Assembly (NCBI GenBank): GCA_004565275.1
Contig: SDOX01000010.1
Span: 629,446-693,445 of the forward strand
DNA from: Nannochloropsis salina CCMP1776
Taxonomy: Eukaryota; Sar; Eustigmatophyceae; Eustigmatales; Monodopsidaceae
DNA: 64,000 nt
Direction of reading: 5' to 3'
The translations under genes and the position numbers were made by a program. Under the pieces are notes generated by a model. That model searched no databases and was not told where the DNA came from. It was given only the letters and a program-made list of their open reading frames with translations. How positions within the stretch are numbered: the stretch's first letter is position 1; the number at the start of each line of letters is the position of its first letter. Positions 14,574-63,341 of this stretch are shown one piece after another.

Positions 14574-14818
14574 GTGGAAGTACTGTGGAGAGAAGGAAAG
14601 CAGACAAACGGGGTAGGAGGTTGACCGGCACAATATGGTTAGTAGCCACGTAAACCGCAAAGCCCGAAAAGGTATGGAAGAGGACAAGAGCGTCTAGCCA
14701 AAGAAGCAAAAATTGTACAGTAAGAGTAGTCACGGACTGGGAATTTTCAGAAAATTTCACCTGGTCTCCATGGACAGATTGACATAAGTCCCCGCTTGGA
14801 ATACTTCTAGGCCCATGC

Positions 14819-32151: not shown

Positions 32152-35100
32152 ATGTCCAATGCTTCACTATCACGTGTCTCAAGCAACAAAACCAAACCGT
32201 CTCCTCTGATTGTTGGATTGTCGCCCGTGTCTGCGCCGCAGCTCGAGCGCACGCCCACTTTGTTTGACCACCTGCACTTGGAGCCCCACGAAAAAGTGAA
32301 TCACAAGACCTTTCAGCATGGTAAGTGCGCTCTAATGCTTTCTTGCACGCCACGTAACGAATCGTGGGGCGCCTTTTCTGTCTTGAAAAAACATGCCAGA
32401 GAGCATCGATGGAATGCCTTCTTGAGACTGGTCTGAAAGGATCTTTTGTTGTTTGCGTTCTTTTTGCCCCCCTAATGACCGACTTAGAACTTTGACAGCA
32501 AGGTTGCTAAAGCTGTGTTTTATTAGGGAATGGCTCGTCTGTCTGTGACTAAAATGGAAAGAAGTGGGTCTGACATCCGGTGTCCACTCACTGTATCTGA
32601 CAGTTTATCTTCCCTCTTATGCACTTGAAGCACGATGATACAATTCCCACGCCTTGCAATGACGATTTCATCTCTAATTGAACATTTTTACCAATCGTAC
32701 TCTCGCTTCTCCTCCCTTACACAGGGGTGCGGGTGCCAGACAAGTCGGAGAGTCAACGGAAACTCATCGAGCTCGCCCTCCATCAAAACTCCCTCTTCAC
32801 GTGCTTGGACGAAGAGCAGATTGGCAAGTTTATCAAGGAAGCCCGGCTTGTGGAGTTCGATCCTGGAGAGGTGGTTTTCGTGCAAGGCGAGAAGGGGTAT
32901 GACTGCTTTATTATTGACGAGGGCGAGGTAGAGATCATGGACGCGTTGGAGGACGGCTCCTTTGATCCTTTTTTGAGCAAGGGTCGGGGGGAAATTTTCG
33001 GAGACGGCTCTATGATATTCCATCGCCGACGCTCGGCGACCGTCAAAGCCAAACAAAAAGTGCGGACTTGGGTCGTGGACGACGAGGTGTTTGTGGAGAA
33101 AATTCTTCACAGCGCACGGATTAAGGCATTGTTCGACAAATACGCGAGTTTGAAAGACCCATCTGACCCCAACGGGGATGCCGTGATGACCATGGACGAC
33201 TTTGTACGCTCTTGCAACGACACGTCTGGCATCGATGTGATCAAGTACAGCCAACTTCGCTCCCTCTACAGAATCGTGCGCGGTGACCAGGAATTCGTGC
33301 GGTTTAAAGATTTCTCCCTCTTCAACATGTTCATGACTCGGCCCGACCCCGAGTACGACATCGCCTTTCTCCTTTTCGACCGGAACAAGCAGGGCTTTCT
33401 GACCAAGGAGGACGTGCTTCATTTCCTTTCCACCCACGTGGGCACCGCTTTTGACAAGGACTGCGATTTGATGAAGAGGTTCTTTGGGTCCACGGGCAAG
33501 AAACGCGTGCGCGTGGACGACTTTTCTTTGTTTTTCAACAAGCTACAGAACGAGATGACACAGCAGGCTTTCCTGCAGATGGACCCTGATGGCAATGGCT
33601 GGGTCTCCTTGGAAGACTTTTACCAGCTTCTCTCCAATTTTGGCCGGCGGCAACTTCCGGAGTCCCTTGTCGCCCGGATAAACGCGACCCGGCGCGGACG
33701 TTCGGTTTCTTTTTTCGATTTCTTGGCCTATCAAACGATACTGAACAACCTCCCTTCCCTCTGCACTACCATTGCCACTGCCGCGGATATCAAGTCGGGG
33801 CCTCTGAGCAAGGACGATTTCAAAGTCGCGTGCAGGGTGCTAAACCGGCGTTTTTCTCGCGCAGAATCAGATGTTGTTTTTGAGCTTTTTGATCTCAATG
33901 GGGACGGATACATCTCGCCCGACAACTGCAAGACGGTGCTCGGGGCGTCTTACATCAAGGTGGGAGTCGGTCACCGGTTGGGAGGGGTCAGGTGTGATGA
34001 CAAGGCACACTGCTCACAGGCGGGATATCCTTTGAATTGTTGCACGAAAAGAATTTTAGATGATAGCGGGAAAAAAGTCTTACATGGTCCATCTTGCTTT
34101 CAACAGGAACTGCGAGCAATCGTCGGTCGCGGGGGAGCCGTCACCTTTGCCCCGCCGCCCGGCTACACAGTGGAGAAATACTCCTCGCACCATAACGCGC
34201 ACATTGATGACGCAAAGGTGGTTCCCAAGACGGTAATGGAGCGTGTATTTCAGTTTTTGCAAGGCTTCTCTCTTGGTGCGATTGCGGGGGGTATCGGAGC
34301 CTTTGCGGTCTATCCCCTCGATCTAGTCAAAACGCGCATGCAAAATCAACGCTCGGGGAAAATCATGCCGGGTGCGGTGCAATACAAAGGAAATATCGAC
34401 TGTTTTCGGCAAGTGCTGGCACGGGAAGGGATATTGGGCTTCTATGGAGGGCTGTTGCCCCAGCTGGTGGGAGTGGCCCCGGAGAAGGCGATCAAACTGG
34501 CAGTGAACGACTTGCTCCGCGACATGTTTACGAATCGAGACAAGGTGACAGGCCAAGATTCCATCTATTTTCCACTCGAGGTGCTGGCAGGGTGCGGGGC
34601 AGGTGCCTCCCAGGTTGTGTTCACAAACCCTCTGGAGATCGTGAAGATCCGGCTGCAAGTGCAAGGCGAAACGGCGCAAGTGCTGATGGCGCAAGGAATG
34701 AAGGCGCCGTCGGCAAGTTCCGCCTGGCAAATTGTGAAGGAGCTGGGTTTCGTGGGGCTTTACCGTGGCGCCTCCGCGTGTTTCTTGCGTGACATTCCCT
34801 TCTCCGGGATCTATTTCCCTGCCTACGCGGCAGCCAAGCGATACGTCGCGGGGGACGCCGACAAGATTCAACCCTACCATTTGCTGATCGCCGGTGCGAT
34901 GGCCGGCGTTCCTGCAGCTTCCCTGACCACCCCCGCAGACGTGATCAAAACCAGGTTGCAAGTCAAGCCCCGCCCTGGGGAAGTGGCTTACGAGGGGATG
35001 GCGGATTGCGTCGCGAAGATCTACGCCGCTGAGGGTATCACGGCCTTTTTCAAGGGGGCCATTATGCGGGTCATGAGAAGCAGTCCTCAATTTGGCGTCA

Positions 35101-35270
35101 CCCTACTAGCCTACGAAGGTCTACGCTCTTTTATATCTCCTACGATGGAGCCTCGTCCGCCCACGAACGCGCCCATTTCGCAGAGTGACTACGACGCTTT
35201 CCGCAAAGAGCACCTGTCATTGATGGCGGACAACGTCTCGAACTTGGTATGGGGGTCTGAGAAATGGTGA
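32152..35270 (+). CDS. Mitochondrial aspartate/glutamate-type carrier with EF-hands and an added cNMP-binding domain
   Basis: Exons 32152-32320, 32725-33959 and 34107-35270 give about 855 residues. After an N-terminal linker (1-57), a cyclic-nucleotide-binding domain occupies about 67-185: FDPGEVVFVQGEKGYDCFII, then the phosphate cassette FGDGSMIFHRRRSATV (usual FGE...RAAT, with Glu replaced by Asp but the Arg kept). EF-hand units as in aralar/citrin follow (about 190-460), with loops DRNKQGFLTKED, DPDGNGWVSLED and DLNGDGYISPDN. The C-terminal half is an SLC25 carrier of three repeats with YPLDLVKTRM, NPLEIVKIRL and TPADVIKTRL, and APEKAIKLAVND and FLRDIPFSGIYFP as in SLC25A12/13. That family swaps aspartate for glutamate at the inner membrane and is calcium-controlled. 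The cNMP domain is not part of the family. The second intron is in frame and has no stop. Confidence 0.88.
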
Positions 35271-43831: not shown

Positions 43832-46800
43832 TCAAACGTAAGGCGACAAAGCTGCCTCCATCTCCTCAACCTTAAGCGCGGCCTGCTCCCTCTCGTATGC
43901 GAACTTTTCACGATGATACATGACTGGACATGTTTCGTTAAAACACCGCACTTTCCAATGTCGACTTCCTCGCTGACATCGACTACAATGACTGTATGCC
44001 TTTTGATGTTCGGTCTCGCAGAAGCGCAAGGCCTCTTGACAAGGGAGAATGCATTTGAGCGGAGCGTCCTTGCAGGATGCACACAACCTTGTTCCTGCCC
44101 TTTCGAGCCCTCCCTGACTTCTATCGTGGCGCTTGATATTCTTTTCACGCGTTTTAGGCAATTTTGTGCGGCAATTAAGGCATCGCAACCCCGTGTCAAT
44201 TGCGAAAAAGTGGCTGATGGAAGAGACACCAGAAACTTTGCCCGCCGGAGCTGCACGATATGAAGGTTTGAATAATTCTTCTGCCTCTGCCATAGGCATG
44301 ACGAGCTGTAGCATCCGCACCATGGGCATACGAATTTGTTTCAAATACTCCATAAGGTCCAAAGTCATATTGTTAGTCAGAGCCAGTGGAGGGGACTCGG
44401 CTTTTCTGTACAGAGGTGCATTCGCCTCGCGCTGTACAAATACGTAGGCCACCCGCTCCCCAACACGAAATTGTCGTCGAGGGTCCTGCGACTCAAGCTT
44501 CTCAACAAGATGCACATGCGGTAATTTTGCATCATACTCACCCAAACGCCAGAGGCCCTTCGTCCAAGTAAGGCTGTACAAGTCAATTTTATTAGTCATC
44601 AACGCTGCAACTTGCTGTCGAATGGTTTCTTTCACAGCTTCGAGATCGCCCTGGCCACTAGAGGCCCCAGAGGTTAAGATTATTGCTAACGTATCTTCCA
44701 TCATATTGACAAGAAAGGGCATGCTATTTCGCGCGACGGCCTCCTGTCAAGATAAATTTATTTACAGCATTAGCGTTTCGTACGAGAAAGTCCACCGGAA
44801 AGCGTTGCATACTGGCCATCAGACGTTTTTCGACCACTAACATCGACTTACCATTCCCTTGATGTGCAGTGATCGTCGATTAAATCTTGGGGATTCACCT
44901 GGAACTCTATTGACATACTCGTAGCCCGCATAGCGCCGAATGTGCTGTAATAGGAGCGGAGCTAACACTTTTTCGTGCTTAAGTTGGACACGAGACGGCA
45001 ATTGTTTGTTCAAAGCAGGTGTTAACAACTCTTTGGAGTGGGTTTCCGCTGCCTCTGAGGTCCAGGCGGGATATTCGACGAAGACAGAGTCCGTGTCACC
45101 GTAAACTACCTTCAGCTCTGGGTGGTCTTTACCGACTAATGAGATGACGTGTGACATGTATTCTCGGCCCAGAGCCAACACCGAATCACCGATCTCGCGT
45201 GAGAAAAGGCTATTGACTGTCGCCCCTGTGAAGCCATACACAGCGTTTGCAGCAAGTTTGAATGCCTTTTGCCGAGCGTCCAATACGCGCCTTTGTCCTT
45301 CACTAACGTATGGCTCTTTTAACACTTTTTGAGCCTGACTTCGCGCTTCCAGAAGGTCAGCCAAGAGGCTTGGTATGACACCCCGTCGTACCTCTGATTT
45401 CACAAAGCATGCACCGATCGGAGTGGAGAAGATGCCATCCTTTATAGGACAAGTACGTGTCTCGGAAGGATTTCTAATAAGTGTACTGTAGCATAAATTG
45501 TGGTGGATCATGATTGACGGGTAGAGGCTTCGAAAGTCCAGGACAGCAACGGGATTCGTGTGCAGACCCACGGTGCCAATGCCTTCGGGATTGGACGGGG
45601 AAGGTTGCGAAGGGTCGAGCAATAAAGCACTTTTGCCGAGTGCTGCTTTGTCTAAGAGCCCGTCGGTGCTCGTCGGGACCACGACTCCTTGACGCGAGGC
45701 GTGGATTTGCAGCAGGCTGGTAACACGCGCCATTTGTCCTCGTATATACACATGAGCCAATGACATGCCCGTAACACGGGCAATTTCAACAAGTTCCGCC
45801 ACCGCGTTCTTCTTAGCTATCACGTCTAAGGCAAGTACCGCGGGGCTTAGTCCAGCCTCCATTGCACGGGCCCAGTTTATGCTATCTTCCTCTGTCAGCA
45901 GTGCCTCTACGCTTCCCGTATCCAGCACTTCAAATGTCCGGCCCAATACATGCATAGAGATGTCTCCTAGGGTATAAAGACGCAAGGCTTCGCTCATCTG
46001 GATCACGCGCATTAAGTCGAGGACGACGCGGCCTGGACAATGTACTTCGGTCCCCTCTTGGTTAGTAGTCGCGCTCATACGTGGCTTGTCTTTCACCCAT
46101 TTGGCCCCATAGCTCTGTTGACTTTTCACCGATATCTTTTCTCCTCGCCTCCGGGAAAACGTGCCAAAAGTTCGCATTTTGAGCGCCTCCGCCCTCCCCA
46201 ACAGAACTCGTAAACTCTCCCCGACCTCGAATCCCGTCACTAGACTCGGATCTTCTTGGATCATAAAGTCGTCAAATGCCTGCAACAAGGCCTCCTCATC
46301 CTTGTAGAGGCGGGTTACCCAGCTTCCACCTACTCGTAGACCCCCAACCATCCGAGTGGTTTTTCCAGTCGAGCCACCGGCCTTGTCGGCGAGCTTTTCA
46401 AGCCCTGTCAAGTTGAGCATGAGTACCTTGGTGCGGGAGTGCGGTAAGTGTCCGCCGTTTTCGTACGTGGTCACCATACCAATCATGCGGATCGGATCTG
46501 GACACTCTTGTCCCTTGTCTCTCCACTGCGAGTCAGGAACGGGCGCACGGTGGCGCTGCACGGACAAAGACACGATCTTCAAAGGCGGTAGTGCACTCCA
46601 CCGCTGCGATTCCGCGAAAGAATGAATTTGAATTGTCCGGCCAAAGCATGTTACTTCCCTCTTCTTCTGATCCCAGGAACATGCGAGCTCTATGTCACAT
46701 GCGGATTTCCGGCTACCCCGCATTTTATGGTCCTCATGACTATTCGCCGCACCTTCAATCACAGGTACCTCAAGCCAATCGCCACCTCGTATGCCACTGT

Positions 46801-47314
46801 CCATGGAAAATCGAGTAGAGACGTCCACTTGCGTGTCATAAAGTATGACATTTGATTTCCCAAGCACTGCTTGAAATGCCGCCACTATCCTGTTCGTGGC
46901 GCTACGCTGCGTTGTCGGGTACACGCGCAGCATGAGAGCGTCAGGTTCATTCCGGTATAACACCAAACTCCGTCGCGTTACGGCCTCGTTTGTAAAATCC
47001 ACGTGCCCCCGGATTCGTGCCCGAATATCATGCTCAACGTCTGGTGATAAACCGTGGGAAGTGACGACACCAGCGGGAAGTTCCACAAAAAAGCTGTATC
47101 GAAAGCCCGCCAGGGAGAGAAGCACGCTTTTTCGGTCGTTTGTGCAGCCATAAATATATATTTCGCCACCTCGGCCAACTTCTTCAATGTCAAGTACAAA
47201 CATGGTCGTGATGCATGCGTCTAAATCGTGACTTCTTGTACTCGTCGTGGTGCGAGCTCTTTTCTTGGTGGTGCTCGGTGTGCATGGAGGAGGATCGTCC
47301 GTCAAATCAGCCAT
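43832..47314 (-). CDS. DNA polymerase delta-like catalytic subunit without proofreading residues
   Basis: Minus-strand exons 44852-47314 and 43832-44743 (intron of 108 bases, GTAAGT...TTGACAG) give 1124 residues. The polymerase core is complete: motif A DFRSLYPSIMIHHNLCYSTL, motif B KAFKLAANAVYGFTGA and motif C VVYGDTDSVFVEY, with both catalytic Asp. The join HIKGM-EAVARNS matches the family's KGLEAVRRD. Two Cys clusters close the chain: CLNCR...CASC (zinc-type CysA) and CSRCQ...CFNETC (iron-sulfur CysB), as in POLD1. The 3'-5' exonuclease region aligns but its four catalytic acids are gone: SFDIE reads SLSVQ, NFDLPYL reads ESLRVLL and LKDA reads KKNA. It may be a divergent second Pol delta-type enzyme rather than the replicative one. 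Best alternative is a zeta-like polymerase, but motif context is closer to delta. Confidence 0.85.
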
Positions 47315-47678: not shown

Positions 47679-49280
47679 TTAATCCATTTTTCCGGCTTTC
47701 CGAGACGTTTTGGGCGCTTTTTTCCCATTTCGTGAAAAAGCACTCCATCCCTTGAGCCCTCGCTTCATGCGGTACATTGCGTTTCTTGCTGACTCTTTTC
47801 CTGCATTGAAGGTCCGCTTCAGATCCTCAACCGAAGCCAAATTGGTCACCACCATCACGCTCAAAATTCGCCAAAAGGTTCCCCGCCAGGCTGGAATCGT
47901 GTTCCAGCTCGAGTAAAATGTGTAGGGTATAACGGTGACGGCAATCAGCGCCAGCGCCATAGCTCGATTCAGCCCATCTCGCCCGTCCTGCCACCATGCG
48001 TCCAAACTATCCCGCCAGCGGGGGAAATGGGATAAGAGCTTGTCGTGCACAATTTGCCAAAAAAGGGAGATGCCCAGCCCAACGAGGAAGTAGACGCTGG
48101 AGAGAAGAAGAACAGTGAAAGTGGGGAAGTAGGAGAGGCAGACTGTGAGAAGTGCGACGTAGGAATGGTAGGCAAGATAGAGGAGCAGGAATTTCTGTAA
48201 ATGCAGAAGCAGCTGACGGACAGTGACGAGGGCCTTGGAGTCAGCGTACAAAGACGTGGACGACGCAGAACGATAGTCCAGGAAGAGCACCAGGCCTATG
48301 AAAAGCAGGGTAACTTTGTAACACCACTTGCTCTGCGATGCCATAGCAATGCTTAGAGCTGCAACACTATAAGCCTCTACCTTCCATCGCACATACGGCT
48401 GCCAACGACGTCGCCTGAGGAAGCTCTGCAAGAGGAGCTCCCACAGGCAGCTCCTTGCTTTTCTGCACCAACCGTTCTCGAGCAGAAGAAGGACAACAGG
48501 AATAATTGCATACATCCACCAAGACTGCCGCCACAAGAGAAGGCATCCAACCATGGCAGCTTGATTTCTCAGGTTCTCCTCCTCCATGGACATGAGCAAG
48601 TTTCTTTCGAGCGAGGCAAAGAAGCCCACAAATTCCAGGGATGGGGCTGGGGGAAACCTGAAAACACCATCCTGGACCTCCATTGCGTGCAAGAACTGCT
48701 GCGCCACGGCCTTTCCTGTCTCCTCGCGGGGCTCTCCCTCCACGGGAAATTGAGTCGTGATCTCCACGTCCCGCAAGCACTCGTACACATCCTCCCTCGT
48801 TATGCCGCTGAGCAATTGCCCTTTCCTTTCCGTGTCAAGACTGCGCCAGTGTTGCAGAGCAGCTTCTGTGTAGCTTCTTCCAATCGAATGTTCACCGTCC
48901 TCAAAAAGCCCCGCGATGCATTCGTGCAAGTGAATGGCGGGTGCGGGGGCCTGTCCAATGGAGCTCCGCCTGCCTTGTGGACAAGATTTCCCATCCTTGG
49001 CACCAGCACGATCCTTACCTCCAGAAATGCCATCTGTAGCGCTGTCAGGTAATTTTGTAGCCCCTCTCTTTCTGCTGCCGGACATATCGGCATAGGTTTT
49101 CGCGTCGCTGTCGCTCCCGCCACCGTGTGGGTAATCACTTGGGTCTTGTAAGGTCTTTGCCTGGTCTGACGATGGAGCAGAAGCACAATTACTGAAAGGT
49201 ATGGATGCATCTGAAGTTAAGATCGGAGACTGTGACCGGTGGCGCTTATGTTTGCCCTTTTGATGCTTGTTGGTTGTCAT
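47679..49280 (-). CDS. Multipass membrane protein of unknown family
   Basis: 533 residues. Residues 1-120 are hydrophilic, Ser/Lys/Gly-rich and probably disordered. Residues about 120-240 look folded (ITREDVYECLRDVEITTQF) and are followed by at least six hydrophobic segments: WWMYAIIPVVLLLLENG, SVAALSIAMA, KVTLLFIGLVLFLDY, LLLYLAYHSYVALLTVCLSY, VLLLSSVYFLVGLGISLFW and AMALALIAVTVIPYTF. The C-terminus is short, basic and Lys-rich. No signal peptide is seen. The layout (cytosolic N-terminal domain, long hydrophobic hairpins) recalls ER or organelle membrane-shaping proteins, but I recognise no family. It is divergent from TRAPPC13 with 380 bases between the starts. Confidence 0.6.
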   Translation of the reverse strand: MTTNKHQKGKHKRHRSQSPILTSDASIPFSNCASAPSSDQAKTLQDPSDYPHGGGSDSDAKTYADMSGSRKRGATKLPDSATDGISGGKDRAGAKDGKSCPQGRRSSIGQAPAPAIHLHECIAGLFEDGEHSIGRSYTEAALQHWRSLDTERKGQLLSGITREDVYECLRDVEITTQFPVEGEPREETGKAVAQQFLHAMEVQDGVFRFPPAPSLEFVGFFASLERNLLMSMEEENLRNQAAMVGCLLLWRQSWWMYAIIPVVLLLLENGWCRKARSCLWELLLQSFLRRRRWQPYVRWKVEAYSVAALSIAMASQSKWCYKVTLLFIGLVLFLDYRSASSTSLYADSKALVTVRQLLLHLQKFLLLYLAYHSYVALLTVCLSYFPTFTVLLLSSVYFLVGLGISLFWQIVHDKLLSHFPRWRDSLDAWWQDGRDGLNRAMALALIAVTVIPYTFYSSWNTIPAWRGTFWRILSVMVVTNLASVEDLKRTFNAGKESARNAMYRMKRGLKGWSAFSRNGKKAPKTSRKAGKMD

Positions 49281-49660
49281 TGAGGTGTCAAACAGAGTGC
49301 GGACTAGAAGGCAGCCAGTCAGGCGAGCAATTGAAGAAAAGTTTCCATAAGCCTAAAAGCCCGGAGAAGCCCCACGCTTCCCCCCAAAAACACCTGTGGA
49401 TGTGCTGTGTAGACGTACCTGCTGTCATTTACCGAGACAGAAGCGCGAACTGCGGTTCTAAGTACTTGATATCATCCTTCGAGGAACGCTCGCTGAAGCC
49501 GTAGGACGACCTCGCAACTGCCATGCAGGCCGCCTCCTACGTGTCCTGAAAGCCCTCCTTTTTCACGCATATGATCCATACGTACAAGACTGAGTAACAA
49601 AATGAGTATATACTTTATTCCACTGTACCAGGGCACAATTTCGTCGCCGCTCCTGTTGTC
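49281..49660. other. Intergenic region, divergent promoters (380 bases)
   Basis: Between the unknown membrane protein (leftward) and TRAPPC13 (rightward). Nothing beyond promoter sequence seen. Confidence 0.4.
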
Positions 49661-53402: not shown

Positions 53403-56400
53403 TTACTGTGTTGCTGTCAGAAGGGAGACGGCATCCAAGTTCCGCTCATCATAGAGCTCGTGCGCCTTTGGCGGCAATGACAGTATCCATCCACGCGCCT
53501 TCATTAGGTCGACCAGTTCGCAAGTGGTGGAGGCTTTGCCAAGCGTAGTGGCAGAGCCAACGATCAAAAGCTTTTTCCTGGCTCGCGAGACCGCCACATT
53601 AATCCGCCGTCGATCCTGTAGGAGGTGGCCTACGACTCCTTCCGCGTTGGAGCGGACCATGGAAATAATGATGCAGTCCCGATCCATCCCTTGGAGCTTG
53701 TCCACCGTATTGATTTCCAGATTTTTGACGTGCTGGAGTCGCCTCCGCAAAAGCTTAAGCTGAGAACGCAAGGGGCTGATGACGGCGACGTTCTCTGCCG
53801 GCACCCCACCTAAGACCAAGGCAGTGACTAATTGGGCGACTAACCGGGCCTCTGTGGGGTTCGTCAGGTTCGATGGACACGTCTGGTCGTGCTTCCATCT
53901 CGGCCGCCCCTCGCTCTGCATTCTTTCCTCGAGCCGTCTCGTGGGATCATCCACACAGCCTTCATTTCCCCGCAACTTCACGATGTCGATCGGCGCGTCC
54001 TCTTGCTTCACCAATGCCTTGACCAACCCATCTTCGAGTGGATTCAGGCTAATACCATCCGTGTCCAGAAATAAAACCGACCGATGCGGGGCGAAGGACT
54101 CTTCCAACCATCCAGTCTTGCCGATCTGGACCTCGCAAGCGCCATCCGCCCGCAGAATACGTAGACGATCAAAGCGAGGCAACTCAAGTTTGGCATTCGC
54201 TACGCTGTCATCGCCACACTGAAGCTGATTGGCGTAGGCCAAGGAGTTACAAACAGACATGATATCACCGTTCATGCGATATTGGAATGTCAGACACTGA
54301 ACCGCCTGAGGATGGGCTTGAGAGAGGCGGGAGAACAAACTCTCGCCCATGCCGTCCTCGGCTGCCAGAGGACTGGCTACCAGAGGTGGCAACTGGTTGT
54401 GATCGCCCACCAGCACGAACGAGGTGGCGAGGCGCAAGGGCCCAAGGCAAACAGGCTCGAGGATCTGCCCTGCTTCGTCCACGATGCAGACGTCGAAGCG
54501 CCGCGAGGCAAGGGCGGCGTGTCGGACCCCTAGGCATGTCGTCGCCACCACCTGCGCCGTACCCAACTTGGCGTCGAGCGCGGCCATAGAAGCAAGCCCG
54601 TCGTTTGCCTCCAATAATGAGTCGTGCAACGCGGACTGGACCTGTGCGGCCCGACCCAGTCGTATGAAGGGTACTTGGCATTCGCGCAAATTAAGGAGCA
54701 CCGTGTCGACGCCAGTGTGTGTGTAGGACGTGATGAGCACACTTTTACCGGTCAGCACCAGAGCGCGGATGACGAAGGCAATCGTCCAGGTCTTGCCAGT
54801 CCCCGGCATCCCCAAGAGCAAAGCCATGTCTTGTGCTGTCAAGACTTTCTCAACGGCCCGTTGCTGGTCGGGATTAAGCCGTGAGAACTCCTCTCGGAGC
54901 TGTTTCTCCCCACATCCTCTCACCTCCCTACTCCCTTGCTGTCGCAGTAACGTGACCGCATCGAAGGGGACAGGGCAGGGCTTTTGGGAGAAGGATGGAG
55001 GCTGCAGATGGACGATGAGGCGACGCCGTTTTTCGTCTCCTGCTGTCGGGACTAAGCGTAGTCCTCCTTTTGGTCGAGGCTCCTTGTGTGCATGTACATC
55101 GGTGCCCTTTTTGGCATTTTCTACCGGTCCAGTAAAGAGACTCATGACGTTTGAGCGCATGGTTGTGAAATTCATTAAAGTGTTGTCTTTGTCTATCCTG
55201 AACACCACAACGTCCTTGGACGCCGGCAGCTGTGGCAGTCCCACATCTCTGAAATCGTCCTGGTAGGCTACAACCAACCCTCTGGAAACGTGATGGGCGG
55301 CCTGTCCATTGCCCGCTTGAGACGTGGATGAGGAAGCGAACGAAAAGTCCGGGTACCCCGGGACGGCGATTGCCTTGGAGCAAACGACCTCCACCGCCGT
55401 CTCGCTTATAGCGCTGACATTACCGCTTGTCAAGTTTACGTGCTGAAAAGGCAGCCACTCCGTTAGTCCCGCGCTGTCACCTGCCACGACCAGGCTCTCG
55501 GTACTCACAAGCACGCGATCGCCTACCGCGATTGCCATTTCGTGCAAGGAGCGTGCGACACGGGAGCCCTCACCACCCTTCATCTTGGCACCACCGGCTG
55601 CTGGGTCGGATCGACCTGCATCTTCCCAAGTTCGGCGGGCGAATCGATACAGATAGGCGGGGCCATCCATTTCCTTCAGAGCCTTTGCCTTGTTGCACAC
55701 CATATCGCTGAAACAACGACTCGTCCGTTCCTCTTGGGCCGCCCCCCGACGGTGCCACAATTCTCGTCCGGTCCGAACAGACGCGTTGGCCTCCAGGCCA
55801 ATGAGCCGATCCCATTTGCGGAGGTACACTCGATCATCTTCCTGGAGGTGACCGGTCAAATCATCGAAAAGCTGTCCGATGGCACTACTCTGCGCTGTAC
55901 CATCTTCGAAGGCTTGGTGGTAGACCATGCATTCCGCTACCTGGAAACACTTGGAGCACCCCCCTGGATGGGCCAAGACCGGAGGTAAGGGCCGTCCAGG
56001 ATTTTGCCCGGCTTGCATGCACGCTTGGGCGACGCGGTTTCGCACTATCAGCAATTGGCGGATTTCGGACTCTCGCCCAGCCACGGTGCGTGTTTCTACG
56101 CCGGTTGTTCTCAAGTAGGCAAGCAAACCCGAGTCCCCTGCTCTGGCTCGCGCGTTTTGTCGTGCTGAGGCCATTCTGCTGCGGCCGGCATGGCCGTACC
56201 GATCCTGGAGCAGGAGACCATAGAGCATGACCTGGCCCCGGTGCTCGGTTTCATTTATGGCGGAACCGCTCTTCAGTTCCAAGGGCAACAACTGTTCGCG
56301 TTCTCCGTCATTACGCCGATGCTCTTCCAGCGATTGCTGTTGCCGGACGGATCCTTGAGGCACTGCGCCGAGCGTGGCGTCAATATTCCCTTTGAGCCCG

Positions 56401-58835
56401 TAAGTGGACGACCAGATGCTCTCCTCCACATGCTGGACGCGTTGCACTTGCACCTCTGGGATGCCAGCTCCACCAGCGTGCTGCCGATCTTGAGGCGGAG
56501 AAAGATAAAGCAGACGAGCCCATTCCACCAGAGGGCGAATCAAGTCAAGAAGCTCCTGTCTGGCCTCCGCTTCCGGCACCCGTAGGCCGTAGAGCTGGAC
56601 ACGAAAGCGCTGTATGACGTGATCCGCGACCCGCTCAATCTCCTCGACGATGGAACCGTCGGCGAGGCGGGGCAGCAACCTGTCACGCTCGTTGAGCAGC
56701 AGGAGGGTGGTTTGAATCAGGCTGTGCTTGAGGTTGCCCATCATGGTCACGGGACTGGACCCGGAGGACGAGGACATGAAAAATTGCAGGACCGCCCGCC
56801 GGTCGCATCGCAAGCCGGCGATGACGGAGGAGGGGGAGACCAAGAAGTCAGGGTGTAGGACCAGATGGTTCCGTGTGCGATCTACCACTGTCAAAAGCCC
56901 GTCCTTTCTTCGTCCATGCTGGTCACAGTCCGTCGTACGCGGGTCTGTGCTTATAATATGGACCAAGTTTCCTCGTTGTGGAGGGCATTCCAGGCTCCAG
57001 GGAGGCCCAACGAGGAGATTTACGCGCTGGCCCGAGGCCAAATGCAAAGCGTCCACGACTAGGCTGTCGTCTCCTTGCGGTCCACCTTGCACATCTTCAA
57101 CCCGATAGCGAGAGTAGCCTTTTGCTTCCTCCAACCCCGGATAGGCGTCGTCGGCGGGCGAGGGGGTTGGGAGGGAGATAACACCGTGCTGGGGGGGGGC
57201 TGCTGGGATTTCAAGGGGACGCTCCTGCACGCAGGAGGGTGAAGGAGATGGCTGGTCTAAGATTTGAGTGGCAGTGAACAAAGGTGCCGCTGCTACTGTC
57301 TCCATAGGGGTCTCAGGAGCCGTGGATTTGGCTGCTGCTGCTCCATCTTCCCTCTTGGGGGAGGAAACGGATCGGCAAAGCGCCGATGGCGGAGAAGACG
57401 CAGGCGCTGCTTGTTGTGTGAGCTGCAAGATCTGGGCCCAGTCATTATCGGTCCACAGATTGGAATCATCTGCTTCCTCCCACAGCTTTGCCTTTTCCTG
57501 TCGCTCGACACATTCCCGCTCTGATTCCTTCTTTCCATCCACGGGTGCCGAGTTCGGTCCGCTGTCCTTGTCTGCCCGGATCTCTCCACCACCGTCCTCT
57601 TCCTGGCTCAGCTTTTCCTCAATCTGCTCCAGGATGTCCAAGAATCGGCGCCCGCCCGTCGCCCCATCTCCTTTTATCGGTCCGACACAGTCGCGGGTTG
57701 TCCTATCCTGGGGGACCTCCCATGATCTCGACGCGGGCCCGTCCCGTGATACCTTGTCCCTTGGTCGACGTGGACCAGCCGCGGACGGAGACGACTGCTG
57801 AATGTGGGTTCGACAATTTTTGGAGAAAAGTTCGGGCCTCAGGGATTTAGCCAGCTCATCCACTCCAGAGGACGCCGCTCCCAAGCAGCTGCTGTCAGTG
57901 TTGACATTTCCTGTCCAAAGACCGTCTTTTCCTGCCCCAATATCCAGCCCGCTCAGATTCTCATTCTTCAATTTCGGGGGATCAATCAGTGAGAGCCTCG
58001 AAGGTTGACCTAGCCCTGGTTTTGAGCGCTTCCCGACAGAAAGCGGAAGGCAACGGCCATTCTTTAGACAACCTTCGATATCCTCGGCCACACTATCTTC
58101 ACCCGCCGTCTCAGCTTGTTCCCGTTTATGCACTGAAGGAGACTTTTTGGTGCATTTCGACATGCTTGATTTTTCATTAATACTGTCGCCGGTGGATGTT
58201 TTGCAGGCGTGGCGATTTATTGCGGGCGACTTTCGGAATAAGAGGTTTCGCAGCAATGACGAAGAAAAAGAAGCACGCGGTTGTTGCTGTAGCAGTGGAT
58301 GCTCCTGATCCTTGTGAGAATGCTTCAGGTCGTCACCATTTTTATCGCTCCAATTATTGCTTCCATCAATGGATCGTACAGAGGACTCATCCTCTCTTTG
58401 ATTTGCATGGTGCTGATCCGATTGCTGCTCGAACAGGCGGGTCTGATCTATGTTTTCCTTGCTTGCCAGCATGTCCTGGATAATACTCAATTCTTTATGT
58501 ACTAGTCCAGTAGAATGTCGTTGCATGGGTCGAAATCGTTTCGGAGAGGCCTGCCAGATGACCTCTTGTGTGTTATCCATGGCAGGGGACTCGTCGTCAG
58601 CTACCTCTGAGGCTGCCAATGCGGGGGCTGCTGCTCCGGTTGTCGTGTAGGAAGACTCAGCAAACTGAATTCCGTCCTCTCCATGGCGCCTGCTTAATCT
58701 ATTACTGCCAGAGTCGTTAGCATTCATAAAAAAAGGTGGCGCGGAAGTCCGTCTTGTGCCATTACGGCCAACGTCGTCTTGCGCCCCAGCAGCCCCGGCG
58801 CTGTGCGGCCGCTTTACACCAGTAAGACGTCTCAT
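53403..58835 (-). CDS. DNA2: DNA2 nuclease-helicase
   Basis: 1810 residues in one frame. It processes Okazaki flaps and double-strand break ends. The RecB-type nuclease shows GLKGNIDATLG (metal Asp, about residue 800) and LPLELKSG...HRGQVMLYGL (Glu and Lys, about 845-865). The iron-sulfur Cys are in VIAGLRCDRRAVLQ and GGCSKCFQVAEC, as in yeast and human Dna2. The SF1 helicase has Walker A LLGMPGTGKT (about 1345), CIVDEAGQILEP (about 1450), LVGDHNQLPPLV, TFQYRMNGDIMSVCN (about 1515), TVDKLQGMDRDCIIISMVRS (about 1710) and INVAVSRARKKL (about 1745). The N-terminal 650 residues are long and largely disordered, with a short PIP- or RPA-like region that I cannot identify; Dna2 proteins are often longer here, and an unseen intron is possible. 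Divergent from SMC2. Confidence 0.93.
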   Translation of the reverse strand: MRRLTGVKRPHSAGAAGAQDDVGRNGTRRTSAPPFFMNANDSGSNRLSRRHGEDGIQFAESSYTTTGAAAPALAASEVADDESPAMDNTQEVIWQASPKRFRPMQRHSTGLVHKELSIIQDMLASKENIDQTRLFEQQSDQHHANQREDESSVRSIDGSNNWSDKNGDDLKHSHKDQEHPLLQQQPRASFSSSLLRNLLFRKSPAINRHACKTSTGDSINEKSSMSKCTKKSPSVHKREQAETAGEDSVAEDIEGCLKNGRCLPLSVGKRSKPGLGQPSRLSLIDPPKLKNENLSGLDIGAGKDGLWTGNVNTDSSCLGAASSGVDELAKSLRPELFSKNCRTHIQQSSPSAAGPRRPRDKVSRDGPASRSWEVPQDRTTRDCVGPIKGDGATGGRRFLDILEQIEEKLSQEEDGGGEIRADKDSGPNSAPVDGKKESERECVERQEKAKLWEEADDSNLWTDNDWAQILQLTQQAAPASSPPSALCRSVSSPKREDGAAAAKSTAPETPMETVAAAPLFTATQILDQPSPSPSCVQERPLEIPAAPPQHGVISLPTPSPADDAYPGLEEAKGYSRYRVEDVQGGPQGDDSLVVDALHLASGQRVNLLVGPPWSLECPPQRGNLVHIISTDPRTTDCDQHGRRKDGLLTVVDRTRNHLVLHPDFLVSPSSVIAGLRCDRRAVLQFFMSSSSGSSPVTMMGNLKHSLIQTTLLLLNERDRLLPRLADGSIVEEIERVADHVIQRFRVQLYGLRVPEAEARQELLDLIRPLVEWARLLYLSPPQDRQHAGGAGIPEVQVQRVQHVEESIWSSTYGLKGNIDATLGAVPQGSVRQQQSLEEHRRNDGEREQLLPLELKSGSAINETEHRGQVMLYGLLLQDRYGHAGRSRMASARQNARARAGDSGLLAYLRTTGVETRTVAGRESEIRQLLIVRNRVAQACMQAGQNPGRPLPPVLAHPGGCSKCFQVAECMVYHQAFEDGTAQSSAIGQLFDDLTGHLQEDDRVYLRKWDRLIGLEANASVRTGRELWHRRGAAQEERTSRCFSDMVCNKAKALKEMDGPAYLYRFARRTWEDAGRSDPAAGGAKMKGGEGSRVARSLHEMAIAVGDRVLVSTESLVVAGDSAGLTEWLPFQHVNLTSGNVSAISETAVEVVCSKAIAVPGYPDFSFASSSTSQAGNGQAAHHVSRGLVVAYQDDFRDVGLPQLPASKDVVVFRIDKDNTLMNFTTMRSNVMSLFTGPVENAKKGTDVHAHKEPRPKGGLRLVPTAGDEKRRRLIVHLQPPSFSQKPCPVPFDAVTLLRQQGSREVRGCGEKQLREEFSRLNPDQQRAVEKVLTAQDMALLLGMPGTGKTWTIAFVIRALVLTGKSVLITSYTHTGVDTVLLNLRECQVPFIRLGRAAQVQSALHDSLLEANDGLASMAALDAKLGTAQVVATTCLGVRHAALASRRFDVCIVDEAGQILEPVCLGPLRLATSFVLVGDHNQLPPLVASPLAAEDGMGESLFSRLSQAHPQAVQCLTFQYRMNGDIMSVCNSLAYANQLQCGDDSVANAKLELPRFDRLRILRADGACEVQIGKTGWLEESFAPHRSVLFLDTDGISLNPLEDGLVKALVKQEDAPIDIVKLRGNEGCVDDPTRRLEERMQSEGRPRWKHDQTCPSNLTNPTEARLVAQLVTALVLGGVPAENVAVISPLRSQLKLLRRRLQHVKNLEINTVDKLQGMDRDCIIISMVRSNAEGVVGHLLQDRRRINVAVSRARKKLLIVGSATTLGKASTTCELVDLMKARGWILSLPPKAHELYDERNLDAVSLLTATQ

Positions 58836-59612
58836 AAATACCTGATCTAAACTTAAAAAATGATGGAAAAAGTCAAATCCATAATCTATAGTAACATCAC
58901 ATGGACCATTGCCTCGCCTGGGTGTCCAAATTCCAGAAATTCACGCCGCTTGTCCTCCCTTTCGTCCTGCTGCCCTTCCATTCGCCGACTCCGATGACGC
59001 TCGCGGAAGAATTTTGGGCGATGGCCAGGCCATGGTTGTATGCCACATGCAGGCACAATCATCCCTGCCACGCGGGATTTTTAGCGCGCATGAAATCCGT
59101 GGATGAGATGGACTAAGTAGGGGACGTCCTGATCGGCCTCGAGGTGCCCCGTCTTATAAAATCCATTGTGTCTTCCGGTGTGCTTCCAGGCCAAGTCCGC
59201 GTACCCGTGTTAAGGAGGAATGCGGTGGAAGACGCATTGCGCATTCCTTCTCCCGACAGAAGTGGCTGACCTTTAGCTAGTTCTGCTTCGTATATCGCGG
59301 CATTAACATGTCCTTTTCCATTTTTGCCGTCCATCTTTCAGCATTTGTTCGTCTGCCGCGTTCCGTTGCCGGCGTCATATAAGCGAGCGTATGCTTTGTC
59401 AAGCATTTCGCGTGTGCTTGACATGTGATGCGCTTATCAATACTTCTTCAAATCTACACATTCACATACACGTAGTTTAGAAGTTCACCGGACTCCTCTT
59501 TTTGCCGTTTCTGGGGCGAGGCTTCCTGGGCAGCGTTTTCTCGCTTCCCTTCCCGCTCGTTCTTTTGCATTGGTCAGAAGACACCAACTTGGCCCGTCAT
59601 TGATTCGGAAGC
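58836..59612. other. Divergent intergenic region of DNA2 and SMC2 (777 bases)
   Basis: Upstream of DNA2 (leftward) and SMC2 (rightward). It contains a candidate short gene on the minus strand, annotated separately. Pyrimidine-rich stretches precede the SMC2 start at 59613. Confidence 0.4.
58886..59334 (-). CDS. Candidate small minus-strand gene, structure unresolved
   Basis: An ATG at 59332-59334 opens a frame of 73 codons (MDGKNGKGHVNAAIYEAELA). In the overlapping frame, bases about 59080-59200 also read like protein (HNGFYKTGHLEADQDVPYLV). A further open stretch at 58886-59071 contains KFFRERHRSRRMEGQQDERE and ends at a stop at 58886. The pieces suggest a short spliced gene, but no join could be established and no family was recognised. 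All could be chance. Confidence 0.22.
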
Positions 59613-62600
59613 ATGTACATTGAAGAGGTCATAATCGATGGATTTAAATCTTATGCGACGCGTACCGTCGTCTCTGGCTTTGACCCATGCTTTAATGCTA
59701 TAACGGGCCTGAATGGAAGCGGCAAATCCAACATCCTCGACTCAATCTGCTTCGTGCTCGGCATCTCCAACCTTTCGCACGTGCGAGTTGGCAATCTCCA
59801 AGAGCTCGTGTATAAGCAAGGGCAGGCAGGAGTCACCAAGGCTACCGCTACCATCAATTTTAATAACGCGGACAAAAAGAGCAGTCCCGTCGGCTATGAG
59901 CACTTTGACCGGATATCTGTGACCCGACAGGTGGTGATAGGGGGCAAGAACAAGTATCTGATCAACGGCCACGCGGTGCAGGCGTCTCAGGTTCAGAATC
60001 TTTTCCACTCGGTCCAGCTAAATGTGAACAACCCTCACTTTTTAATCATGCAAGGTCGGATCACCAAGGTATTGAACATGAAGCCGCACGAGATCCTGGG
60101 CATGATCGAGGAGGCGGCAGGGACCCGCATGTTCGAGAACAAGAAGCAAGCCGCGTTGAAGACCATCGAAAAGAAGGCGGCCAAGATGGCCGAGATTCAA
60201 AAGGTGTTGGTGAATGAGATCACGCCGACCCTGGAACGCCTCCGCAAAGAACGCAAGCACTATTTGCAGTGGTCGAAGAACAACGCAGAGATCGAGAAGC
60301 TCCAGAGGCTGTGCGTCGCACATCAGTACACACAATATCACGAGGAGGTGTCCCGGTCTGCAGAAGAGCTCTTGGGTATGGAGACTGAACGGGACCGGCT
60401 CAAACAAACTGTCCAGTCGCTGAAGGCGGCGGTGCAAGAACGGGGTGCTGAGGCGGCCAAGCTCCACGACCTGCGGGAGAAAGAATTTGGCAAAGCGCTC
60501 GAAAAGGCAAAGTCGAAGGAAGAATCACTTTCCAAGGAGCTGGTGAAGATGAACACGCATTGGAAGAACAAGAAGAGTACCCTGGATAAGGAGGAGAAGG
60601 CGTTGGAGGCCATGCAACAGCAGGTGGGGGATGCTCACGGGGCGCTCAATGAGAAGGTCAAAGAGCTTCAGGCGTGCGAAAGCTCCGTGTCGGCAGCGCA
60701 GGCGGTGCTCGTGGAAAAGGATAAGGTTCTGCAGGAAATGGACCATGCCTATCAGGCCATGTGTGCGGGAACCACAGAGGGTGGCGACAGGGAGGACGCT
60801 GCCACGTTGACCGACCAAATCGCTTCTTCCAGCCAGGCAGCCCATGCTGCGGAGGGGGAAGCAGAGCGCTTGGGCCTGCGGATCACTCATTTGGAAAAAG
60901 CCATCGTGGAGGCCAAGAAGGAGCTGAAAAAATCGGAGAAGGAAGGCGCCAAGATCCAGAAGGACAGGGAGACCCTAAAATCCGCTGTGGCGGACTTGCG
61001 TGGTAAGCTGCAGGCCCTAGGGTCGGAGGAAGCCGCCGCCGACCAGCTCCGAGCCCAGCTACAGGATGCCGAACCCCGTCGGGACGCGTTGCGCGACCAG
61101 ATTGAGACCCTGGCGGCGCAAGTGGAAGGCAGGCTGGCCTTCGAGTACCGTGATCCTGAAAAGGGGTTTGACAGGTCCCGTGTCAAAGGAACGGTGGCTC
61201 GGCTCGTGAATTTGAAGGACCCCGCCGCAGCCACGGCCATCGAGGTCGTGGCAGGGGGCAAGCTCTACCAGGTCGTGACCGACACCGAACAGACGGGCAA
61301 GTTGCTCTTGCAAAAGGGCGGGCTAAAGCGGCGCGTGACGATCATTCCCTTGAATAAAATCTCCCGACACGTCGTGGAGGCGGGGCGTCTCAAGAAAGCC
61401 ACCCAATTGGCGGAGCGGCAGGGAGGAACGGCGCGCCTGGCCCTGGAATTGGTCGGTTACGATTCCGAAGTGCGCGCCGCCATGGAGCACGTGTTTGGCA
61501 GCACCCTTGTGTGCGATACCTTGGACGTGGCCAAGTCACTAACTTTCAACAAGGAGATTGGGCGGCGCACCGTCACGCTGGCAGGAGACTCCTTCGACCC
61601 ATCTGGCACTTTGACGGGGGGGTCCAAGCCAATCGGGAACTCTATCTTGGGAAAGCTCCAGGAACTAAAGGGGGCTACCGCGGAGCTATCTTCTCTCGAG
61701 GCCCGCGTCAAGGAGCTGGAAAGCGCTCTGGCCAAGCAGGGCTCCGCCGATAAAGAGAGGGGCAAGTTGACGGCGGCTCTGGAGATGAAGGAGTATGAGC
61801 TTCGCTTGCTGGAAGAGCGGGTCTCGCAGAGTGTGCACGGGATGTACGCAACCCAGGTGGAGAAGCAAGAAAGCGAGCTTGCAGAGTCCAAAGCCGCAGT
61901 GGCGGCGGCCAAGGCCAAAGCGGTCGAGGCGGCAGCTCGACACAAGACGTTGCAGCAGCAGGAGGCAGGTTTGCGGAAGAAAAGGGAGGAAAAGTTGAAG
62001 GGCTTGGAGAATGATTTGAAAAAGGCCAAGAAGGCACAGGAGGCCGCGGCCACCGAAGTCAACACAGCGGAACATCGCCGGAAGAAGCTTGAGTTGGAAG
62101 TGAAAGAGCTCGAGGGGGAGGATTCAAGCGTGGCAGCCCAGCTGACTGCGTCCAGGGAGGGTTTGTCGAAATTGACATCGGAAGTGGAGGCCATGGATAC
62201 AGAATTGAAGGGAAAGCGCGAGGCGTACGAAACAGCGAAGCATACGTTGGCCGAAGCAAAGCAACAAGTGGCAGTGTGCGACAAGCAGATTCACAAGCTG
62301 GAGGCTGAGAATACCAAGGCCGAGAAAGAAATCTCAGCGTCAGAAATCGAAAGCAAAAAGCTTGAAAACAAAATCGGTCGCTTCCAAAAGGACAAAACAG
62401 CGGTTCGACGCGCCCTAAGCGCGCTCCTGGAGAAGCATCCGTGGGTGGAGACGGAGAAGCAATTCTTTGGACGGCCCCATACGGACTACGATTTTGAAGC
62501 CCGAAAACCCGCCAAAGCTCATCATCTGCTGGGGAAGCTACAGGAAGAGCAGGCGACTTTGGCGAAAAACATCAACAAAAAGGTCATGGCCATGATAGAG

Positions 62601-63341
62601 AAGGTTGAGGCCGAGTATGAAGAGCTGGGCAAGAAGCTCCAAGTGATCGACAATGACAAGATAAAAATGATGAGCGTGATAGAAGAGCTGGAGGTGAAGA
62701 AGAATGAGGCGCTGCAGACGACATGGGTCAAGGTCAATCGAGATTTCGGCTCTATATTCTCAACCCTTTTGCCGGGAACGAACGCGAAACTGGATCCGGT
62801 GGAAGAAGGCTCTGTGTTGGAGGGCCTGGAGGTGAAGGTCGCATTTGGGAGTGTCTGGAAAGAGACCTTGACAGAGCTGAGCGGAGGACAACGTTCTTTG
62901 TTGGCCCTCTCTCTCATATTATCCCTGCTGCTTTTTAAGCCCGCGCCCATGTACATTTTGGACGAGGTGGACGCTGCCTTAGACTTGTCGCACACGCAAA
63001 ATATTGGGGCCATGCTCCGCACCCATTTCTCTCACTCGCAATTCATCGTCGTGTCGTTGAAGGAGGGCATGTTCAACAACGCCAACGTTATCTTTCGGAC
63101 ACGTTTTGTGGACGGGGTTTCGACGGTGACCCGCACCCTCGGCAACGGCCCCGCGCTCAAGAGCAAGCAAGCTCAACTCAACAAAGCGACCTCTGTGTCG
63201 GCGCTCTCGGGCTCTAAAGCAGTCTCGAAGGGAATTGGCAACGTCGGGGAGGAGGGTGCCGAGAAGAAACGGAGCAAGAAGGGAGGTGGTACAGAGAAAA
63301 GTGCTCGCGGACAAGAAAAGTTAATGCTTGCGGAATGCTGA
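59613..63341 (+). CDS. SMC2: Condensin subunit SMC2
   Basis: 1242 residues, ATP-driven chromosome-compaction subunit that pairs with SMC4. It begins MYIEEVIIDGFKSYATRT, with Walker A GLNGSGKSNILDSI (about 32-45) and the family's RVGNLQELVYKQGQAGVTKA. Long coiled coils flank a hinge at about 520-680 (AFEYRDPEKGFDRSRVKG and VAGGKLYQVVTDTEQTGKLL), ending SFDPSGTLTGGSKP. The C-terminal head has the ABC signature LTELSGGQRSLLALSLILS (about 1085) and Walker B PMYILDEVDAALDLSHTQNI (about 1112). YIEEV and the SFDPSGTLTGG motif identify SMC2 rather than SMC1, 3 or 4. A Lys/Ser-rich tail of about 60 residues is added after the head. No intron is visible. Confidence 0.95.
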   Translation: MYIEEVIIDGFKSYATRTVVSGFDPCFNAITGLNGSGKSNILDSICFVLGISNLSHVRVGNLQELVYKQGQAGVTKATATINFNNADKKSSPVGYEHFDRISVTRQVVIGGKNKYLINGHAVQASQVQNLFHSVQLNVNNPHFLIMQGRITKVLNMKPHEILGMIEEAAGTRMFENKKQAALKTIEKKAAKMAEIQKVLVNEITPTLERLRKERKHYLQWSKNNAEIEKLQRLCVAHQYTQYHEEVSRSAEELLGMETERDRLKQTVQSLKAAVQERGAEAAKLHDLREKEFGKALEKAKSKEESLSKELVKMNTHWKNKKSTLDKEEKALEAMQQQVGDAHGALNEKVKELQACESSVSAAQAVLVEKDKVLQEMDHAYQAMCAGTTEGGDREDAATLTDQIASSSQAAHAAEGEAERLGLRITHLEKAIVEAKKELKKSEKEGAKIQKDRETLKSAVADLRGKLQALGSEEAAADQLRAQLQDAEPRRDALRDQIETLAAQVEGRLAFEYRDPEKGFDRSRVKGTVARLVNLKDPAAATAIEVVAGGKLYQVVTDTEQTGKLLLQKGGLKRRVTIIPLNKISRHVVEAGRLKKATQLAERQGGTARLALELVGYDSEVRAAMEHVFGSTLVCDTLDVAKSLTFNKEIGRRTVTLAGDSFDPSGTLTGGSKPIGNSILGKLQELKGATAELSSLEARVKELESALAKQGSADKERGKLTAALEMKEYELRLLEERVSQSVHGMYATQVEKQESELAESKAAVAAAKAKAVEAAARHKTLQQQEAGLRKKREEKLKGLENDLKKAKKAQEAAATEVNTAEHRRKKLELEVKELEGEDSSVAAQLTASREGLSKLTSEVEAMDTELKGKREAYETAKHTLAEAKQQVAVCDKQIHKLEAENTKAEKEISASEIESKKLENKIGRFQKDKTAVRRALSALLEKHPWVETEKQFFGRPHTDYDFEARKPAKAHHLLGKLQEEQATLAKNINKKVMAMIEKVEAEYEELGKKLQVIDNDKIKMMSVIEELEVKKNEALQTTWVKVNRDFGSIFSTLLPGTNAKLDPVEEGSVLEGLEVKVAFGSVWKETLTELSGGQRSLLALSLILSLLLFKPAPMYILDEVDAALDLSHTQNIGAMLRTHFSHSQFIVVSLKEGMFNNANVIFRTRFVDGVSTVTRTLGNGPALKSKQAQLNKATSVSALSGSKAVSKGIGNVGEEGAEKKRSKKGGGTEKSARGQEKLMLAEC

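What the first reader, a model, noticed from the sequence alone, without database searches (positions are those of the whole stretch)
43832..47314. Pol delta-like polymerase with all proofreading acids replaced
The polymerase motifs A, B and C and both C-terminal Cys clusters are intact. In the aligned exonuclease domain, however, all four acids used by Pol delta for proofreading differ: SFDIE is SLSVQ, FD in the Exo II motif becomes SL, and the Exo III Asp is Asn in KKNA. Losing every one argues for relaxed or lost function rather than sequence error. Either this lineage's Pol delta no longer proofreads, or this is a second, specialised Pol delta paralogue and an intact POLD1 lies elsewhere in the genome.
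Basis: partly seen in the sequence, partly recalled or inferred. Interest (0 to 1): 0.75.

Follow-up and report, generated by a model that had tools for sequence, protein, structure and literature searches.

The report
Proofreading-dead polymerase resembling Pol delta
This gene encodes a DNA-copying enzyme built like the replication polymerase Pol delta, but every acidic residue needed to proofread its own errors has been replaced, so it is probably a specialised extra polymerase rather than the cell's main one.

Summary
The core observation holds. A two-exon gene (47314..43832, minus strand, 1,124 aa) encodes a family-B DNA polymerase with Pol delta architecture, intact polymerase motifs A/B/C and eight C-terminal cysteines. 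All four proofreading acids are gone: Exo I D/E are S251/Q253, Exo II D is S367, Exo III D is P491. In 33 viral family-B polymerases these acids are 31/31, 31/31, 33/33 and 33/33. Decay is domain-specific: 8 of 18 conserved exo columns kept, 24 of 28 polymerase columns.
The protein is too divergent for an ordinary POLD1 (226 bits to human POLD1; a 509-aa yeast Pol3 query gives 701), which favours an extra, specialised copy. Its branch is unresolved: similarity, N-terminal architecture, motif B, fold search and the thumb/C-terminal tree favour delta; exo-containing trees place it beside zeta (bootstrap 81-99), partly through the exo motif columns. Whether an intact POLD1 exists elsewhere could not be tested: no genome is held. 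The "eustigmatophyte" origin is untested.

The parts
44852..47314 (-). Exon 1: residues 1-821 (N-terminal, exonuclease-like, palm and fingers domains)
   Evidence: Open frame; splice donor GTAAG from 44851
44744..44851 (-). Intron, 108 bp, GTAAGT...TTGACAG; splicing gives HIKG-MEAV, compare KG(L/I)E(A/T)V in Pol delta
   Evidence: Sequence; in-frame join
43832..44743 (-). Exon 2: residues 822-1124 and stop (thumb and C-terminal cysteine domain)
47252..47266 (-). KKRAR basic stretch (residues 17-21), possible nuclear localisation signal
   Evidence: Sequence; the parallel with the basic N-terminus of human POLD1 is recalled, not tested
46748..47215 (-). Delta-type N-terminal domain (about residues 34-189)
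   Evidence: phmmer to human POLD1 E 0.005, no zeta hit to E 10; strands in the model
46556..46570 (-). Exo I remnant SLSVQ (residues 249-253): D to S251, E to Q253
   Evidence: lies in strand 246-254 of the model
46208..46231 (-). Exo II remnant FEVGESLR (residues 362-369): D to S367
45842..45856 (-). Exo III remnant AGLSP (residues 487-491): Y to A487, D to P491
   Evidence: lies in helix 478-501 of the model
45803..45814 (-).
45515..45538 (-). Motif A DFRSLYPS (catalytic D593)
45233..45259 (-). Motif B KLAANAVYG, delta-type (YGFTGATV), without zeta's FSGRMPC
45086..45103 (-). Motif C YGDTDS (catalytic D740, D742)
44930..44941 (-). KKRY motif altered to IRRY (K792I, K793R)
   Evidence: K in 30/33 and 33/33 viral rows; 19/21 and 21/21
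43910..44182 (-). CysA and CysB metal-binding region (residues 1009-1099)
   Evidence: Pfam zf-C4pol 2.5e-7; alignment with human POLD1

Best explanation
The gene encodes an intact, polymerase-competent but exonuclease-dead family-B polymerase of the delta/zeta clade, most likely a fast-evolving duplicate of POLD1 that works beside a normal proofreading Pol delta encoded elsewhere. Inferred mechanism: its C-terminal cysteine domain docks it on the shared B-subunit (POLD2-type) and PCNA, and it extends primers with the normal two-metal polymerase site; having no editing site, it does not chew back mismatched or lesion-paired ends, so it would favour extension past lesions, repair synthesis or gap filling, as Pol zeta does. 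Shown by sequence: the domains, the loss of the editing acids, the intact polymerase motifs and cysteines. Inferred: polymerase activity itself, the duplicate status, partners and cellular role.
For: All editing acids replaced. Domain-specific decay: conserved columns kept, exo 8/18, polymerase 24/28; leave-one-out over the 21 viral rows gave minima of 14/18 and 26/30 to 25/28. Frame open over 1,124 codons with a weakly coding-like codon score in frame 0 in each domain, exo included. Too divergent for a replicative POLD1: 226 bits to human, while a 509-aa yeast Pol3 query gives 701; polymerase identity 42% against 67%. Delta outscores zeta in the three regions where both could be compared: Exo 71 v 39, Pol 142 v 122, C-terminal 70 v 32 bits; in the PDB search the N-terminal region hits human delta (E 0.005) and no zeta to E 10. 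Foldseek: ranks 1-5 are all Pol delta, zeta at ranks 39, 45, 49 of the 50 shown. Thumb/C-terminal tree joins delta, 78/96. Pol zeta, a clade-mate, has an inactivated Exo domain and extends past lesions (PMC7544198, passages); for human Pol delta the extent of lesion bypass depends on proofreading (PMC9508823, abstract).
Against: No second POLD1 was seen because no genome could be searched. Trees that include the exo domain put it beside zeta (bootstrap 94-99; 81 with motif columns dropped), and five of six AU tests on such data reject query+delta at p 0.010-0.030, the sixth (motif columns dropped) giving 0.098. Homogeneous simulation does not reproduce this by long-branch attraction (0/100), and exo-dead Pol alpha is not drawn to the query. 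It lacks the insertion before motif C seen in human, yeast and recalled plant delta and in the fungal delta of L081. No expression, relative or activity data.
Confidence: 0.58

Rival explanations
1. It is a zeta-side polymerase: this lineage's REV3 in shortened, divergent form, or a sister lineage of zeta that shared the exonuclease loss.
For: Exo-containing trees join query and zeta: 99/97 with verified sequences only, 95/95 with archaeal outgroup, 94/95 with alpha. Zeta-like states at Exo II (GFE, S for D) and Exo III (LS.A). Homogeneous simulation under query+delta gives 0/100 such trees.
Against: Motif B is delta-like (YGFTGATV) and lacks FSGRMPC found in the human, yeast and Arabidopsis zeta rows (human and Arabidopsis rows are recalled). 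No zeta subdomain upstream of the exo domain (about 57 residues from NTD to exo). Thumb/C-terminal tree favours delta 78/96, though zeta is not rejected (AU 0.405). Support falls to 81/80 when exo motif columns are dropped. Letting exo rates relax separately in zeta and query yields the false join in 10/60 simulations. Delta scores higher in the three regions compared.
Confidence: 0.2
2. It is the lineage's only Pol delta, so the main lagging-strand polymerase replicates the genome without proofreading.
For: Delta architecture, intact polymerase motifs and cysteine domain. No other copy seen, but only the 64-kb window could be searched.
Against: Divergence far above that between yeast and human or yeast and the fungal L081 POLD1 (69% identity); loss of conserved KKRY lysines. 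In yeast, loss of Pol delta proofreading raises mutation and mutator states are readily suppressed (PMC3188538, abstract).
Confidence: 0.12
3. It is a captured viral polymerase gene.
For: NCLDV polymerases are close relatives of Pol delta (PMC7544198 section 18).
Against: The viral rows tested score lower than human delta and human zeta in the full, exo, polymerase and C-terminal comparisons; a pattern scan of viral contigs with the protein found no relative; intron; delta-type cysteine domain, against which the best viral row scored 3.3 bits. Few eukaryotic-virus rows were available.
Confidence: 0.03
4. It is a decaying pseudogene or a sequence artefact.
For: Long branch; many conserved exo residues lost.
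Against: No stop or frameshift in 1,124 codons (chance about 2e-24 at this composition) and frame-0 codon score above the other five frames in each domain; polymerase motifs intact.
Confidence: 0.04

Closest known systems
POLD1 / Pol3, catalytic subunit of DNA polymerase delta
   Same: Domain order NTD-exo-pol-thumb-CysA-CysB, motifs A/B/C, motif B YGFTGATV, best sequence and fold matches
   Different: All four editing acids and the Exo III Tyr replaced; KKRY is IRRY; lacks the insertion before motif C; 28% (exo) and 42% (polymerase) identical to human POLD1, where human and yeast share 61% and 67%
REV3 / REV3L, catalytic subunit of DNA polymerase zeta
   Same: Inactivated exonuclease domain, polymerase motifs kept, two cysteine clusters, some shared residues at Exo II and Exo III; joined with it in exo-containing trees
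   Different: No subdomain upstream of the exo domain, no FSGRMPC motif B, 1,124 aa against 1,504 for the yeast chain in PDB
Exonuclease-altered yeast Pol delta (PDB 7kc0)
   Same: Exo I Asp is Ser, as here: that chain reads SFSIS in the printed sequence
   Different: Within the 509 aa printed it differs from the other yeast chains only at Exo I (that this was engineered is recalled); here all three exo motifs have changed in a natural sequence
Pol alpha catalytic subunit
   Same: Eukaryotic family-B polymerase with inactivated Exo domain (PMC7544198, passages); Exo I reads FSMK, by inspection also Ser for Asp
   Different: Retains the KD of Exo III; sequence much more distant

Membership tests
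DNA polymerase delta catalytic subunit (POLD1) | Family-B polymerase motifs A, B, C with catalytic aspartates | tested here: met
   D593, D740, D742
DNA polymerase delta catalytic subunit (POLD1) | CysA and CysB C-terminal clusters | tested here: met
   zf-C4pol 2.5e-7; eight cysteines aligned with human POLD1
DNA polymerase delta catalytic subunit (POLD1) | Active 3'-5' exonuclease motifs (FDIE, NxxxFD, YxxxD) | tested here: not met
   SLSVQ, E...ES, A...P
DNA polymerase delta catalytic subunit (POLD1) | Groups with POLD1 in a tree | tested here: inconclusive
   Thumb/CTD tree yes (78/96); with zeta left out, a 96/94 group with delta; exo-containing trees no (AU p 0.010-0.030 in five tests, 0.098 with motif columns dropped); pol only and pol+thumb unresolved
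DNA polymerase zeta catalytic subunit (REV3) | Inactivated exonuclease domain | tested here: met
   By sequence only
DNA polymerase zeta catalytic subunit (REV3) | Unique subdomain upstream of the exonuclease domain (PMC7544198 section 18) | tested here: not met
   About 57 residues between NTD match and exo strand; 36 in human POLD1
DNA polymerase zeta catalytic subunit (REV3) | Zeta motif B, (Y/F)GYT(S/A)A.FSGRMPC, seen in the three zeta rows used | tested here: not met
   Reads YGFTGATVNSL; (two of the three zeta rows are recalled sequences)
DNA polymerase zeta catalytic subunit (REV3) | REV7-binding motifs | not tested
   -
DNA polymerase delta catalytic subunit (POLD1) | Binding to POLD2 and PCNA; Fe-S cluster in CysB | not testable with these tools
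   Only the ligand cysteines are visible

The most novel reading that the evidence does not exclude
The gene represents a further, exonuclease-dead class of eukaryotic family-B polymerase that branches near the delta/zeta split (beyond alpha, delta, epsilon and zeta), kept as a dedicated error-tolerant polymerase that uses the Pol delta accessory machinery.
Probability: 0.1. Interest if true: 0.8.

Novelty: new variant of a known kind. Interest (0 to 1): 0.5.

Why it matters
An inactivated exonuclease is known for Pol alpha and Pol zeta (PMC7544198), while Pol delta is known as a proofreading replicase (recalled). A natural Pol delta-like enzyme with the editing site gone would show a route by which a replicative polymerase becomes a specialised error-tolerant one, perhaps paralleling the origin of Pol zeta. 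It is a directly testable case: one genome search decides between an extra polymerase and a genome copied without Pol delta proofreading, the latter predicting an unusually high mutation rate.

Tried and rejected
The window's own genome could not be searched. Pattern scans with exon 1 found no relative in viral contigs or genome contigs; a human+yeast delta query found none in viral contigs. The polymerase-domain alignment brought 80 viral loci, the best of 316. The delta query brought 21 genome loci: 20 with archaeal titles and one POLD1 69% identical to yeast Pol3 in a record named as a Deltaproteobacteria MAG, taken as eukaryotic (fungal-like) contamination.

Control rows: of the 80 viral loci, 33 were read as open frames. 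Of these I picked 21 by eye, to keep the alignment small, after seeing the motif printout and without a fixed rule; left out were L008, L012, L015, L017, L019, L024, L028, L033, L036, L043, L045, L059. The acids were therefore recounted on all 33 with another MAFFT setting; the result is the same except one Exo III Tyr (H in L017) and motif C in L012. The conserved-column count and the fold alignment rest on the 21.

Alternative Exo I placements were considered and rejected; the Exo I columns of query and alpha were misaligned while those trees were built. Long-branch attraction as sole cause of the zeta join was tested and not supported (0/100 with query+delta recovered in 90; coupled rates 0/60 with 50 recovered); relaxed exo constraint can produce it sometimes (10/60, 44 recovered). 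Pol alpha, added as an exo-dead control, did not move to the query. In one search the zeta rows hold no N-terminal domain, so the NTD comparison with zeta rests alone; the yeast zeta row there ends at the KKRY motif.

Literature: in the rows shown by the searches no title or abstract start describes an exonuclease-dead Pol delta paralogue. Several lists were cut, and the library holds open-licence papers only, so this is no proof of absence. A table in PMC6680887 lists several POLD1 hits per dinoflagellate species (passages); whether these are paralogues or fragments was not followed.

Full report
WHAT IS THERE. The minus strand carries an open frame from ATG at 47314 to 44852, a 108-bp GT-AG intron (44851..44744) and a second exon ending in a stop at 43832. 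The spliced product is 1,124 aa. Pfam finds the exonuclease domain, family-B polymerase and the C4 zinc finger of Pol delta. The best PDB matches are human and yeast Pol delta for exon 1 (226 and 196 bits; zeta 133, alpha 90) and for exon 2 (71 bits to human delta; no zeta among the 17 hits to E = 1). tblastn of the window with human delta, human zeta (recalled sequence) and the protein itself returned one place each, all in this gene. Neighbours include isocitrate lyase, a Dna2-like helicase-nuclease and an SMC protein.

THE EDITING SITE. The exo domain was aligned to delta by phmmer, by MAFFT with delta, zeta and viral rows, with archaeal rows added, with 21 viral family-B polymerases and with all 33 that were read. 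In the last the Exo I Asp and Glu are present in 31 of 31 filled rows (2 of 33 gapped) and are S251 and Q253 here. The Exo II Asp is 33 of 33 and S367 here; the Exo III Tyr is 32 of 33 and Asp 33 of 33, and they are A487 and P491 here. The phmmer alignments begin after Exo I, so Exo I rests. Three other alignments placed different residues under Exo I; the only acidic one, residues 41-43, used references cut at Exo I and falls in the N-terminal domain.

CONSTRAINT. Of 46 columns at least 90% conserved among the 21 viral rows, 18 lie in the exo region and 28 in the polymerase region; this protein keeps 8 and 24. In leave-one-out over the viral rows the poorest keepers had 14 of 18 (exo) and 26 of 30 or 25 of 28 (polymerase). 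The exo losses include the four acids, the Exo II Phe and the Exo III Tyr. The polymerase losses include both lysines of KKRY (I792, R793). The frame is open throughout and its codon score is above that of the other five frames in every domain, though only slightly positive.

HOW DIVERGENT. Over the polymerase domain it is 42% identical to human POLD1 (90/212) and 39% to yeast (84/213), while human and yeast share 67% (147/221); over the exo region 28% (76/271), where human and yeast share 61% (172/283). This is hard to square with an ordinary replicative POLD1.

DELTA OR ZETA. For delta: higher phmmer scores than zeta in the exo, polymerase and C-terminal regions and an N-terminal match to human delta with no zeta hit; Foldseek ranks 1-5 are Pol delta and zeta appears at 39, 45 and 49; delta-type motif B; no upstream zeta subdomain; the thumb/C-terminal tree groups it with delta (78/96), where zeta is nevertheless not rejected (AU p 0.405); with zeta left out it falls in a 96/94 group with delta. 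For zeta: exo-containing trees join the two (99/97 with verified rows only and 99/98 with recalled human zeta; exo only 97/96; 95/95; exo only with alpha 94/93 and exo+pol 94/95) and reject query+delta (AU p 0.015 and 0.010; 0.024; 0.030; 0.024). Undecided: polymerase only (delta AU p 0.122, zeta 0.45; 0.239 and 0.394) and polymerase+thumb (0.125 and 0.197, best tree with delta and L001 at 80/83; delta 0.245, best tree with zeta at 55/49). Dropping the exo motif neighbourhoods weakens the zeta join to 81/80 with AU 0.098 for delta. Data simulated under query+delta gave the zeta join in 0 of 100 and 0 of 60 replicates, but 10 of 60 when exo rates in zeta and query were decoupled. Two of the three zeta references and one delta reference are recalled sequences. 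The placement is therefore open, with delta favoured by architecture and similarity and zeta by exo-containing trees.

FUNCTION. Shown: editing residues gone, polymerase residues and metal-ligand cysteines kept. Inferred: a polymerase that extends without editing. Pol zeta, of the same clade, has an inactivated Exo domain and extends past lesions (PMC7544198: section 18 and passages read). For human Pol delta, how far it inserts opposite and beyond lesions depends on proofreading (PMC9508823: abstract read). In yeast, loss of proofreading elevates mutation and suppressors arise readily (PMC3188538: abstract read). A specialised extra polymerase is thus more likely than the sole Pol delta.

LIMITS. 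No source genome, close relatives, expression or activity data. The organism's identity was not established; GC of 48-65% per 2 kb and compact genes fit many algae. For PMC6610115, PMC8570151, PMC2669801 and PMC6680887 only passages were seen; none describes this gene.

Noticed in passing
window 53403-58940 (-): Long open frame (1,845 aa) with Dna2 nuclease and AAA helicase domains: a DNA2-like replication and repair protein about 6 kb from the polymerase gene.
   Followed up: partly
window 59604-63341 (+): SMC protein with hinge and N-terminal ATPase domains; SMC2-like by inspection only.
   Followed up: partly
window 14783-16114 (+): RNase H1-like protein: RNase H1 N-terminal (Cauli_VI) domain and an RVT_3/RNase H domain.
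   Followed up: partly
window 32682-35270 (+): One frame joining a cyclic-nucleotide-binding domain, EF-hands and a mitochondrial carrier with three repeats, which looks an unusual combination.
   Followed up: no
window 47679-49352 (-): 557-aa probable membrane protein (by inspection) next to the polymerase gene with no Pfam match to E 0.01.
   Followed up: no
L081: A record named as a Deltaproteobacteria MAG (NYXK01000071.1) carries a POLD1 in several exons, 69% identical to yeast Pol3 over 509 aa: probably eukaryotic contamination in a bacterial genome collection.
   Followed up: partly
window 44930-44941 (-): KKRY motif is IRRY; the two lysines are 30/33 and 33/33 in viral polymerases, so DNA contact may be changed as well as editing.
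   Followed up: partly
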